A stretch of DNA of 64,000 nt from Deuterostichococcus epilithicus. Taxonomy: Eukaryota; Chlorophyta; Trebouxiophyceae; Prasiolales; Stichococcaceae. Of the stretch, positions 15,223-31,936 are shown piece after piece. The notes below the pieces were generated by a model. That model was not told the DNA's origin, searched no databases, and worked only from the letters and a program-made list of their open reading frames with translations. Positions within the stretch are counted from its first letter, which is position 1. Every line of letters starts with the position of its first letter. A program made the translations under genes and the position numbers. The stretch is from NCBI GenBank assembly GCA_033439295.1, contig JAVTLE010000008.1:744001-808000 (forward strand). Direction: 5' to 3'.

Positions 15223-19156
<3,934 letters not shown>

Positions 19157-27063: not shown

Positions 27064-27780
27064 TTCATAACCTGGAAGGGTGCATCCCACGGTATACAGG
27101 TGGAGGCGAAGGAAAACGGGGGGGCTGCTACCACAATGGAGGAGGGATAAGCCGGGCCAGCAGTACGCATGGGGGCCTCTGGAGGCTTTGTTCGAGGGTG
27201 CTGCTGCAGTAGACTGGATAGCATACCGTCTGCTGATGTGCCATTTGTCGCTCGTGGAGGGTTTCCAGTGGTCCAGAGGCACCCAGCAGCCACAGAGTTT
27301 GAGGAGAGAAGTGCAGATGCAAGTGCGCAAAAGTAGCAAGTAGATTGTTAAGTCAACGTGAATATTGATTTCTCATTGGCAGCACCATACCTAGTGTCAC
27401 TCCTGTAGGCCTCCGTTACAGCAAAAGTGACACGCATTCTGGGGTGAAGTTCACTGTGGACAAGCTGCAATAGTGGCACGTTTTGCCCATTGTCAGCAGA
27501 AGAAACAAACCACATTGCAACTACCTAAGACAGGCTACAACAACACGACAAGTGTGTTCTACCTCAAGAGCCACAGTCTTGCACCTGCATAATCCTGTCG
27601 CCTAGCTACCTGCTACTCGGTCACACAGTCGCTGCACCATTGTGCAAATGAAGCGCCTTGCTGTTGTGTCACCGATCACATTCGAAATCGAAATGGAGTA
27701 CTCAGCTGTCTAGACAATTGCCAGAGCTCTGATAGCTGCGGCCTGCCATCTATTTTCGCCGCAGGCCAATGTCCCGACCA
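27064..27780. other. Convergent 3' region U2A' / glyoxalase
   Basis: About 700 bp between converging stop codons, more AT-rich than the neighbours (27340-27720). Both 3' UTRs are expected here; no gene seen. Confidence 0.45.
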
Positions 27781-29020
27781 TCAGGCCGCTGTGTTGGCAC
27801 ACACCGGCCACTGTTTTGCGAAGCTGGCCTCCGCTGCAGGTGGCGTGGCTGGGCATGCAATGTCCGTGCTGAGCAGTGCGCGGGACATTGCATGCCCAGC
27901 CACGCCACCTGCAGCGGAGGCCAGCTTCGCAAAACATAACACGGCGCACGGCGCTAGTGGCCGGATGGGCAGGCAGTCGCAGTTGCAGATCTGCACAAGC
28001 AATGCTGCCTCAGAATCGTTGCGCCCACTGGGGGAGACTGGCGCGTGCGCCAATCCGAACAGCTGCAGGAAGTGCCATGTCAACGTGCGCACGCACAGCA
28101 CCGCTTACCTCTACCATGTTGTTGTCCGGGTCGTGCAGGAATATCTGCACCAGAAACCACGAGATTAGTTTCAAAGCCTTGAAGGGAGCAGGCATTGAGG
28201 GTTTCCTGACTGACATCGTCTGCCTACCTGCGTGATCCGCAGCCCGTGCTCCACGACGGCTTCCTTGACAAATGGGATGCCGCGGGAGTTCAGCCTCTCC
28301 TCCACGATGTCCAGCGAGTCAGACTGCACCATCCGGCACCATGTGTGAGTCGCGGCGGTGTGAAGGCGACTGCGACATGCACGATATGCAGGTGCAGGTC
28401 ATGGGGTTCGCCATCTTGTGAGGTGTACCTGGAACGACAGATGGTCCGCCTTGGGGCTGATTTGACTGGACCGTGGCGACGGCTGTCCCTCGATCAAGTG
28501 AATACCGATTCCGTAGTTGAACAGCCTGTGTTTTTGCAGAAAGGTTTGAGTCAAGATCGTCAGCAAGCCGTCGCTCACAATCTTCGAACAGAAGTTGATG
28601 CATGGTAAATGATCTCGAGGGGGAAAGCTGGGCAAAGCCCATCGAAGGGTGGACCCTCCAGACTGCACTTGCTTGCTACGCTGACAGCACCATCGACAAG
28701 TGGCCAGGTCAGGACTCTTCCAGCAATGGTGAGTTTCTATCATCACAGATGCAAGCCTGTGAAGGGGCCGCCGTTTGCTGACGTTGGCCGGCAGCTGGGC
28801 CTTAGCCGCCTAGTCAGCAGCTGGGCTTCAGCGCGCGGGACATGGCCGGCACTCACCAGGCGCCATCGAACTGGAAGGAGGGCCTCTGGATTGGGATGAA
28901 GCCCAGGACGTGAGTGTAAAAGTCGACGCTGGACTGCACATCGCGACAGACCCTGGAGACGTGATTCAGGCTGCGGATTGGCAGAATTGGAGTATGGTCC
29001 GCACTCATTTGCCGTTTCAT
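27781..29020 (-). CDS. Glyoxalase I-like VOC-domain protein
   Basis: Member of the vicinal oxygen chelate superfamily, closest in memory to plant glyoxalase I-like (GLYI) proteins. Exons join cleanly: exon 1, with LPIRSLNHVSRVCRDVQSSV, then DFYTHVLGFIPIQRPSFQFD and GAW; LFNYGIGIHLIEGQPSPRSS, then QISPKADHLSFQ; SDSLDIVEERLNSRGIPFVK, EAVVEHGLRITQ; IFLHDPDNNMVE; and the last exon (27990-27781), ICNCDCLPIRPLAP. The metal-site pattern is visible: His in NHVSR, Glu in HLIE, His in DHLSF and Glu in MVEICN. The start is taken at 29020 (MKRQMS); 29008 and 29104 are also in frame. After LAPCAVL the reading frame runs straight through a perfect inverted repeat (27812-27936), adding some 45 residues not expected in the family. 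It is divergent from borealin. Confidence 0.88.
27812..27936. repeat. Perfect 54-nt inverted repeat, 17-nt spacer
   Basis: Arm 27812-27865 is the exact reverse complement of arm 27883-27936; the spacer is 27866-27882. The RNA from either strand would fold into a 54-bp stem without mismatch. It sits in the last coding exon of the glyoxalase gene and keeps the frame open: one arm encodes LCFAKLASAAGGVAGHAMS, the other TDIACPATPPAAEASFAKQ. Base pairing was checked by eye over the full arms. Confidence 0.97.
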
Positions 29021-29638: not shown

Positions 29639-31936
29639 ATGCCAGCGAAGAAGCGCAAGCCGCTGGGTGCGAAGGACACCAATGTCGACGCGGAAGCGCA
29701 GCCCTCTGACGCGCACGCCGGCCGAGCCAAGGCGTTGCAGATCATGGAGAGCCTTGAAGAGCAAGGTGCGCAGGCTGCGCACTCATGCGACGTGGGCGCA
29801 TGCACCCAGATCCTGTGCATCTGCCGCCAGGCGCACGGTGCTGACGCCGTGAGCTGCTGCCGTGCAGTCCGTGACAAGTGCAGCGAGCTGCTGCGCATGG
29901 CGGACGACGCCGCCCTGGCGCTGAAGAACGAGTACACCCTGCAGCTGCTGAAGCTGCCCAAACAGGTAAGCACCGGGGTGTGAGGGCGCCGCGCCCGAGC
30001 GTGTACTATGTATGCGTGAGACGCTGGCACCCTTTGTTGCAGAAGCTTTCAAGACTGCCATGAGACGCATGGCAGACAGAAGTGAGCGAGAATGCGCAAC
30101 GGCCCTGCCGCCACAGCTCTAGCAAGCCGTCGTGGTCCCGAAGCGTGCTCAAGGTTCCGGCGCAATGCAGGTGCGCAGCCTGCCACTGGTGGAGTTCCAG
30201 CGCGAGTACGCTGGCGACATCGAGGCGGCGCTGCTAGCGCGTGTCACCGGCCGACTCGAGGTGCATTTCCGATGCCTCCTGCGTCACAGCTCTCTTCTGA
30301 ATGAAAGTGTTGCAACGGGTGCAACAGGTGGGCGCCCCTTGTACTGCATCGGGAAAGCACGGACATGGTCTTGTCGTACCTCCGACACTGCTTCTTGAGA
30401 CACAGGTGTCCCGCGGCATGGAGGCGCCAAATCCATCAGCTGCAGCGCCGGCGGACGTCGCCACGACCGTGACGCGCACCAGCCGCAGGGCGCGCGCGCC
30501 GCCGCCGAGGTTTGATGCCGCGCCAGCCACCCTGACGCGGCGCGGCGCCCACGCGCTCAGGTGCCGTGGCTGGCATGCCCTTTTCGCGCGTGCAGTGGCC
30601 ACCCTCCTGATTGAATGCTCGTCTCTGTTTTGGAGGAGACACTTTGTTCAAACAAAGTGTCTCCTCCCCAGATGGAACCTATCACTTCACAGGCGGACAG
30701 ACGCAAGAGCCTGCTCCAAAGTCGTGAGGGCAGCTTGGGCGATCACTGCGAATACCAATCGTGATCTCCTGGTGGCTCTGACGACGATAGCATTCGTGCC
30801 GTTTGCAGAGGCGGGGAGACGCCGGCAGCAATAGGCGCAGGACCGCGCATGGAGCCGGGCACAGCACGCGCTTTCCGGCCTGGCGAGGTCCTGTACTCGC
30901 AGTCAGGTGGGTGTGAGGCGAGTGCATGCTGCTGTTCATGCATGCATGTTGCCGTGAGGGCACGCCTTGCAACTGTAAGCCAACGACTCGGAGCGTGTGC
31001 GTCCCGGGATCACGCCTCGGCGCCGCGCAGTGTCAAGCCGTGGTCCCCTCCACACCGTTTGGATGTAGGCCTACAACAGTCGCCGTACTCTCAGCGAAGA
31101 GGAGTCCGCACGTCAGCTTGTCGGGCTGCAAGCGCTGTGCAGGGGCGCTCCGATAGAACACGCTGCTTGCGCAGGCTCGCCGGTGGAGCTCGATTCGATG
31201 ACGGTCGGGCGGCATGCGCCGCTGGCGGGGCCGCTGGTAGGCGGCACCGTGCTGCCGACGCCGATGCCGGGCACCGCGCTGCCGGGCGGCGCCGACGGTA
31301 TGGCGGGCTGCGCCACTGTCTTCACGCAGCGGCCGCGCGGCCGCACGAAGGCCACCCAGGGCAAGACCATTCTGGTCACGACAGAAGGTGCGGTCTCCCG
31401 CCCAGCCGCATGAAGTGCTCTGGGGCGGAGGATGCTCACCCTAGGCTGTTGAGTCTCCTGTCGAGGCAAGCGGAGAGTCTGAAACGACTGTCCTGGCTGT
31501 CGCTTGGGCAGTCGAGAGCAGGAGCACGGCATCCGGACCGGCGCCACACCGCATCCGCGTCAGGCCGCGCCCAGCTGACCCGCTGCGTCTTGACACACAC
31601 CTCCCAACCTTCATGACCGATGCAAGGCTGCCGCTGCTCGCATCCGTGAGACCTGGTTTCAAGACTTTTCTCCGCGCGCGCTGCAGACAGGCGGCGGGCG
31701 GCGGTGACGGATGGCGGCGCTGTGCCGGCCACTGCTCACTGTCATGAAAGCCCTTTGTCACCGAACCATCCATGACCCCCGCCTCCGTTTGTATCACAGA
31801 TGGGCGGCAGGTGGTGGTGACAGACGGGGACCTGGGCGCCATTCCGGCGGAGCTGCGCGTGGAGGTGCACGAGAAGCTGCTGGACCTGTACAACACCGTC
31901 GCCAGCGTGGTGCCCGCCACCGCCAAGCGGCCGTGA
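29639..31936 (+). CDS. BORR: Borealin (chromosomal passenger complex subunit)
   Basis: Predicted scaffold of the chromosomal passenger complex, which places Aurora kinase on centromeres and the midzone. Exon 1 starts at MPAKKRKPLGAKDTN (29639) and ends with the helix KNEYTLQLLKLPKQ. The next recognisable exon, VRSLPLVEFQREYAGDIEAA, gives the borealin order LxLLKLPK...LPLVEF, matching the animal ILRLPKALR...WLDYF. A basic middle part (RTSRRARAPPPRFD) is followed by AFRPGEVLYSQSG joined to SPVELDSMTVGRHAPLAG. The last exon has DGRQVVVTDGDLGAIPAELR and VEVHEKLLDLYNTVASVV, resembling the C-terminal dimerisation domain of vertebrate borealin. Stop at 31936. The link between the RRGAHAL exon and the MEPGTARAF exon does not keep phase with the obvious splice sites, so a small exon may be missing there. 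Confidence 0.75.
30632..30667. repeat. 17-bp inverted repeat in a borealin intron
   Basis: ggaggagacactttgtt, two bases, then its exact reverse complement. Seen directly. It lies in the presumed intron between about 30559 and 30840. Confidence 0.95.

What the first reader, a model, noticed from the sequence alone, without database searches (positions are those of the whole stretch)
27812..27936. Perfect 54-bp foldback inside the last coding exon of a glyoxalase gene
Two 54-nt arms are exact reverse complements with a 17-nt spacer, and the glyoxalase frame stays open through both arms and the spacer to the stop at 27781. A perfect coding foldback of this size is unusual: it would make a stable hairpin in the mRNA, a possible Dicer substrate, and matches the inverted-duplication route proposed for the birth of microRNA loci. 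The arms probably arose by recent inverted duplication of one coding segment, because no mismatch has built up. It also adds about 45 residues to a VOC protein that normally ends soon after the metal-ligand Glu.
Basis: partly seen in the sequence, partly recalled or inferred. Interest (0 to 1): 0.8.

Follow-up and report, generated by a model that had tools for sequence, protein, structure and literature searches.

The report
Inverted self-copy in glyoxalase gene
A stretch of about 71 bases at the end of an ordinary enzyme gene seems to have been copied back to front next to itself in one step, adding 20 amino acids and a very strong hairpin; a close relative without the copy shows what the gene looked like before.

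Summary
The perfect 54-nt foldback is real and at the stated coordinates, far beyond chance; no other copy of the arm was found in the 46.8-Mb genome. It lies in the last exon of a five-exon plant-type VOC/glyoxalase gene. A close relative (P0001; 164 of 176 comparable residues identical) has the same tail without the upstream arm, so the insertion is 20 residues, not 45. The 17-nt "spacer" is gene sequence too: read on the + strand, spacer plus arm encode VLSSAR-DIACPATPPAAEASFAK, matching P0001's VLSSAQ-DIACPATPPAAEGGFAS. The inverted copy is therefore 71-74 nt, and 11 nt of linker was lost from the sense strand. One four-point template switch (order 3-1-4-2) explains all but two bases of one leucine codon. 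Best reading: a recent template-switch (or templated break-repair) mutation in a tolerant tail. Argonaute- and Dicer-type domains occur in the genome, so dicing is possible, but no small-RNA data were available. A known kind of mutation, in an unusually clear nuclear coding example.

The parts
28857..29020 (-). VOC/glyoxalase gene, exon 1 (ATG at 29020)
   Evidence: GT donor follows; P0001 aa 1-56 match
28429..28525 (-). exon 2
28228..28323 (-). exon 3
28109..28144 (-). exon 4 (IFLHDPDNNMVE)
   Evidence: same residues in P0001 except one N->H
27781..27990 (-). exon 5 (last), from ICNCDCLPIRPL to TGA; holds the foldback
27812..27865 (-). downstream arm in sense: the original, in-place segment (DIACPATPPAAEASFAKQ), continuous with the C terminus shared with relatives
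   Evidence: present in P0001, P0002 and, diverged, in P0004, P0019
27866..27936 (+). inverted copy, 71 nt (up to 74 with bases shared at its ends); on the + strand it reads VLSSARDIACPATPPAAEASFAK
27866..27882 (+). the '17-nt spacer': part of the inverted copy (Val-Leu-Ser-Ser-Ala-Arg), whose sense linker (11 nt, inferred) has been lost
   Evidence: P0001 has VLSSAQ here
27937..27939 (-). Leu codon TTA at the first switch point; the inverted copy records CTG: the only part of the exon the single-event model does not explain
27834..27908 (-). candidate 75-nt in-frame intron created by the inversion (CTGCAG|GTGGCG ... CCACCTGCAG|CGG); untested
   Evidence: 15 of 47 GT-AG pairs are in frame, so its existence alone is no evidence
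27869..27949 (-). second candidate in-frame intron (81 nt, GTGCGC ... CTGCTCAG) that would remove the whole upstream arm; untested
27416..27420 (-). TGTAA, the poly(A) signal usual in green algae (recalled), about 360 nt past the stop codon

Best explanation
A single templated-copying mutation. While the last exon of this glyoxalase gene was being replicated (or a break in it repaired), synthesis left its template just after the Val(-Leu) codons (27937), jumped about 65 nt ahead on an intact opposite-strand or sister copy (to the CA of the Gln codon, 27812), copied 71-74 nt backwards through the DIACPATPPAAEASFAKQ segment and the SSAR linker into the Val codon, and returned to the GGAC at 27865 on a shared GG. 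Result: the inverted copy is inserted, 11 nt of sense linker disappears, net +60 nt, frame kept, 20 residues added to a C-terminal tail beyond the VOC domain. Shown: the sequence, the extent of the copy, its polarity against relatives, and no second copy found. Inferred: the pre-event DNA, the molecular machinery, tolerance of the change, and that it is fixed in the organism. Likely consequence (inferred): a strong mRNA hairpin that Dicer could cut, acting in cis; no evidence that this is selected.
For: P0001 and P0002 have the tail with the exact junction VL-SSAQ-DIACP, and P0004 and P0019 have a diverged form of it; none of the 7 relatives aligned has the 20 extra residues. tblastn of P0001 against the genome hits the + strand at C7:771860-771937 (P0001 residues 146-171, E 8e-5), while the downstream sense piece begins only at residue 152. 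BLASTP of the + strand peptide 27866-27934 with P0001: 18/22, 6e-11. Only 1 of 127,966 six-frame positions in the window matches VLSSAQ at 5 or more of 6 residues, and it is this one. One four-point event gives the present 210-nt exon with 2 mismatches, both in one Leu codon, and a 2-nt ambiguity (shared GG) at the return (the linker letters were taken from the inverted copy, so their fit is by construction, and P0001's SSAQ is the independent support). The downstream arm differs from P0001 by at least 4 nt in 54, yet the inverted copy carries all of this genome's states, so the copy postdates them or has been homogenised.
Against: The pre-event DNA is inferred, not read: only proteins of the relatives were available. 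The Leu codon (TTA in sense, CTG in the copy) needs two extra changes next to 108 nt without any, so the first junction may be more complex (untemplated bases). A second sense piece (P0001 129-156, 27919-27999) runs a few residues into the new arm, a weak chance similarity. Copied length (71-74 nt) exceeds the 5-34 bp of most yeast foldback insertions (PMC11724301, abstract). The order 3-1-4-2 is not named in the main text of PMC7954356. The first protein search had 863 matches of which 120 are listed, so unlisted relatives could carry the insertion. No reads were seen.
Confidence: 0.85

Rival explanations
1. Templated insertion during double-strand-break repair (foldback priming or polymerase-theta end joining) rather than a replication-fork template switch. 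The 11-nt linker loss would mark the break. This is a variant of the best explanation, not an exclusive alternative.
For: Loss of linker at the join and short microhomology (GG) at the return are usual marks of templated insertions (recalled); yeast breaks give templated inverted duplications by foldback (PMC11724301, abstract).
Against: The copy runs without interruption across the lost linker and into the codons on its far side, which implies an unbroken template: a sister or opposite strand, not the broken end's own fold. Most yeast events are 5-34 bp.
Confidence: 0.25
2. The foldback is a young microRNA or siRNA locus: the mRNA hairpin is cut by Dicer and the small RNAs regulate the gene or others.
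For: Stable perfect stem on both strands; Piwi and PAZ matches close together on C7, and Dicer_dimer plus two of the genome's three RNase III matches close together on C19; in Chlamydomonas some DCL3-sensitive mRNAs have miRNA (1 gene) or siRNA (3 genes) precursors in coding exons (PMC4817775, passages), and cis effects by dicing are proposed (PMC5511227, passages); [quoted passage not shown]
Against: No small-RNA data. No second copy of the arm was found, so only self-targeting is expected. No Rfam family reaches its gathering score in the window. Nine Chlamydomonas mRNAs had foldbacks with no clear siRNAs (PMC4817775). Perfect pairing is explained by youth without selection.
Confidence: 0.12
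3. The inversion created a new intron, so that the hairpin is spliced out of the mature mRNA.
For: CTGCAG is its own reverse complement, so copying CCACCTGCAG|CGG backwards gave CTGCAG|GTGG: a donor-like and an acceptor-like site, in frame, 75 nt apart; three of the gene's four introns end in TGCAG.
Against: 15 of 47 GT-AG pairs in the exon are in frame, as chance gives; none of the gene's four donors begins GTGG; no transcript data.
Confidence: 0.1
4. A foldback transposon or MITE with long terminal inverted repeats.
For: Long perfect inverted repeats around a tiny centre.
Against: No other copy of the arm found in 46.8 Mb (that search skips very common words and scores only the best candidates); the downstream arm is protein-coding sequence in relatives without the foldback; the centre is also gene sequence.
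Confidence: 0.01
5. Assembly or library artefact (read foldback).
For: No raw reads could be checked.
Against: Net +60 nt keeps the frame; the copy has discrete ends inside a gene with an 11-nt loss; 15 of the 18 contigs whose length was shown exceed 1 Mb, so the assembly looks long-read (inference).
Confidence: 0.04

Closest known systems
Template-switch mutations (four-point model; PMC7954356 and PMC8794818, abstract or passages seen)
   Same: Reverse-complement copy of a nearby segment inserted in one step, giving a perfect inverted repeat; switch points can be ordered; some microRNA hairpins are thought to start this way.
   Different: Here in a nuclear coding exon, in frame, with a 54-bp stem and 71-74 nt copied; order 3-1-4-2, not the majority patterns 1-4-3-2 and 3-2-1-4 of great apes; probably a green alga rather than a mammal.
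Coding palindromes of Nematomorpha mitochondria (PMC6649704; abstract, discussion section and passages read)
   Same: Perfect inverted repeats inside protein-coding genes; template switching is one proposed origin.
   Different: Mitochondrial, many per genome, both arms encode conserved residues and seem maintained; here one nuclear case, in which only one arm is shared with relatives and the other is new.
Rickettsia palindromic elements (known here only from passages of PMC6649704)
   Same: Palindromes inserted in genes without destroying the protein.
   Different: Those are described as transposable elements; no second copy of this arm was found in its genome.
Templated inverted insertions at yeast breaks (PMC11724301, abstract)
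   Same: Short inverted duplication of adjacent sequence using microhomology.
   Different: Those are mostly 5-34 bp and made by foldback at the break.

Membership tests
Template-switch mutation (four-point model) | Insert is the reverse complement of adjacent ancestral sequence | tested here: met
Template-switch mutation (four-point model) | One set of four switch points turns the ancestor into the descendant | tested here: met
   2 mismatches in 210 nt; the ancestor's linker was inferred from the copy and is supported only at protein level by P0001
Template-switch mutation (four-point model) | Direction resolved by a relative without the event | tested here: met
   4 tail-sharing relatives lack it; P0001's SSAQ could not be regained by deleting the hairpin, because the sense strand no longer holds it
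Template-switch mutation (four-point model) | Arose during replication rather than break repair | not testable with these tools
   sequence alone does not separate them
microRNA locus | Hairpin precursor | tested here: met
   predicted folds
microRNA locus | Precisely processed 20-24-nt small RNA | not testable with these tools
   no small-RNA reads held
microRNA locus | Dicer and Argonaute in the organism | tested here: met
   domain matches over the curated cut-off for Piwi, PAZ, RNase III and Dicer_dimer; whole genes not modelled, the best Piwi match and one RNase III match each have one in-frame TAA (perhaps intron), and the second Piwi piece is below the cut-off
MITE / foldback transposon | Multiple dispersed copies | tested here: not met
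   only this place found
VOC / glyoxalase I-like protein | Glyoxalase domain | tested here: met
   PF00903 1.7e-11, 45 bits against cut-off 20.6, residues 18-132

The most novel reading that the evidence does not exclude
One template switch in a coding exon made, at a stroke, a perfect 54-bp Dicer substrate and a ready in-frame intron (CTGCAG|GTGG...CCACCTGCAG), because a palindromic CTGCAG gives donor- and acceptor-like sites when copied backwards. If either is used, this is the birth of a cis-silencing hairpin or of an intron, caught with its ancestral state readable in the inverted copy.
Probability: 0.15. Interest if true: 0.7.

Novelty: new member of a known kind. Interest (0 to 1): 0.42.

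Why it matters
Long perfect hairpins are very unlikely to arise by point mutation; template switching is a proposed source (PMC8794818, passages), and template switches are reported as depleted in protein-coding regions of the human genome (PMC7954356, passage). This case keeps a record of the lost linker in its own inverted copy, so its inferred ancestor can be checked, and it sits in an organism that seems to have RNA interference, so the step from accidental hairpin to small-RNA source can be tested directly.

Tried and rejected
Mobile repeat: rejected. Rfam: no family at gathering score in the window. Paralogue as donor: all 6 tblastn pieces of P0001 in the genome lie at this locus. Idea that the hairpin is ancestral and was lost in relatives: rejected, because deletion cannot restore SSAQ. 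The first ancestor built was one base short (linker 10 instead of 11 nt); its four-point result (10 mismatches) and its 'plain insertion' comparison came from that error; the four-point search was redone and the comparison was not used. An early exon-1 boundary was off by one and was mended. Papers: searches; I noticed no nuclear, in-frame, template-switch hairpin in a green alga in their listings, but listings were capped, I opened only six papers (outline, passages or one section each), and most subscription journals are not held. One protein search, and three paper searches, were left unused.

Full report
Observation. The foldback is exactly as described: arms 27812-27865 and 27883-27936, 54 nt, no mismatch, 17 nt apart. 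Ten Markov replicates of the window gave longest perfect foldbacks of 11-15 nt. In 292 kb of this genome (window plus 23 fetched stretches, 3 of them chosen for Dicer/Argonaute) no other foldback combines a short spacer with an arm over 22 nt: the six perfect arms of 23-35 nt, and an imperfect pair of 60 nt (55 matched), lie inside one repeat cluster of L035. No other copy of the arm was found in the 46.8-Mb, 21-contig genome (that search skips very common words and scores only the best candidates).

The gene. On the minus strand five exons (29020-28857, 28525-28429, 28323-28228, 28144-28109, 27990-27781), with GT-AG introns, give a 200-aa protein with a Pfam Glyoxalase domain at residues 18-132. 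The exon boundaries were placed by me from splice sites and conserved residues and then agreed with P0001. The named relatives listed are mostly land plants, with some green algae. All six tblastn pieces of P0001 in the genome lie at this locus. The organism was not identified; intron-rich, about 60% GC and with these relatives it is probably a green alga (inference).

The empty site. Protein P0001 (JGI, 998-bp contig, 180 aa) is 83% identical over the full query and identical at 164 of 176 residues outside the changed stretch. Its tail reads PCAVL-SSAQ-DIACPATPPAAEGGFASQRLVLANTAA; the window's reads PCAVL-CFAKLASAAGGVAGHAMSRALLST-DIACPATPPAAEASFAKQWPVCANTAA. P0002 has the P0001 tail; P0004 and P0019 share it in diverged form. 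Of the 7 relatives aligned, none has the 20 extra residues; the first search had 863 matches of which 120 were listed, so this is not a full census. The downstream arm is therefore older coding sequence and the upstream arm the newcomer. The insertion is 60 nt net; the tail itself is old.

The spacer is part of the copy. Read on the + strand from 27866, the 17 nt and the arm encode VLSSAR-DIACPATPPAAEASFAK. This matches P0001 from V148 (18 of 22 in BLASTP, where the first codon was read as Met). The genome tblastn had already reported it: + strand 771860-771937 aligned to P0001 146-171, while the downstream sense piece aligned only from 152. An upstream sense piece there (129-156) runs a few residues into the new arm, which I take as chance similarity. 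Among the window's 127,966 six-frame hexapeptides only this one matches VLSSAQ at 5 or more of 6. Hence the copied tract is 71-74 nt; it covers the Val-Leu codons, the SSAR linker and the arm, and the sense linker (11 nt) was lost. P0001's SSAQ cannot be produced by deleting the hairpin from the present sequence, which fixes the direction without outgroups.

Mechanism. An exhaustive search over four switch points, starting from the inferred ancestor, reproduces the present 210-nt exon with 2 mismatches, both in one Leu codon (TTA in sense, CTG in the copy), with order 3-1-4-2 and a two-base ambiguity (GG) at the return. The same holds whichever of the two Leu codons the ancestor is given. The linker letters in that ancestor come from the copy, so their fit is by construction; the independent check is P0001's residues. 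By the logic of PMC7954356 (passages) a switch point 2 ahead of point 1 cannot come from the nascent strand itself; this order is the same read from either direction (my deduction; the order is not named in that paper's main text), so an opposite-strand or sister template is implied. The uninterrupted copy across the lost linker says the same for a break-repair version. Which polymerase pathway acted is not decidable here.

Age. No mismatch in 54 pairs bounds arm divergence at 5.4% (95%). The downstream arm differs from P0001 by at least 4 nt in 54, and the copy carries this genome's states, including the Lys codon where P0001 and P0002 have Ser and P0004 and P0019 have Asn. So the event is younger than those changes that arose in this lineage, unless the arms have been homogenised.

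Consequences. RNA folding gives -143.9 kcal/mol for 171 nt against a shuffle mean of -73.3; as single-stranded DNA -90.9 against -38.9. Piwi (C7:934315-934461 over the cut-off with one in-frame TAA, and 935441-935557 below it) and PAZ (C7:938778-938999) lie together on one strand; Dicer_dimer (C19:1127076) and two RNase III matches (C19:1133681, 1137875) lie together on another contig, a third RNase III match being alone on C3. The organism thus probably has an Argonaute and a Dicer-like enzyme, though whole genes were not modelled. Chlamydomonas offers precedent for Dicer-sensitive hairpins in coding exons and also for mRNA foldbacks with no clear siRNAs (PMC4817775 passages). Whether anything is processed here is unknown. 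Some in-frame GT-AG pairs could splice the copy out, but in-frame pairs are as common as chance predicts (15 of 47).

Verdict. The origin is explained: most likely one recent templated-copying event in a tolerant C-terminal tail. It is a new member of a known kind of mutation, unusually well recorded. A regulatory role is open, not supported.

Noticed in passing
window 30632-30667: A 17-nt perfect inverted repeat with a 2-nt centre, the second longest foldback of the window.
   Followed up: no
L035 8299-8946 (G000:C5:2008299-2008946): A cluster of many inverted repeats of 15-35 nt (and an imperfect 60-nt pair), possibly a satellite or the end of a mobile element.
   Followed up: no
L023 7043-7088 (G000:C6:307043-307088): A perfect 22-nt inverted repeat with a 2-nt centre.
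   Followed up: no
L018 and L039 (G000:C7:934315-938999): Argonaute-like Piwi and PAZ matches about 126 kb beyond the end of the window on the same contig.
   Followed up: partly
L016 1148-2758 (G000:C19): A 537-residue low-complexity open stretch with a few unread or masked bases, upstream of the RNase III matches of the Dicer-like locus.
   Followed up: no
window 16981-17096: Tandem repeat of a 55-bp unit, 2.1 copies, 80% matches.
   Followed up: no
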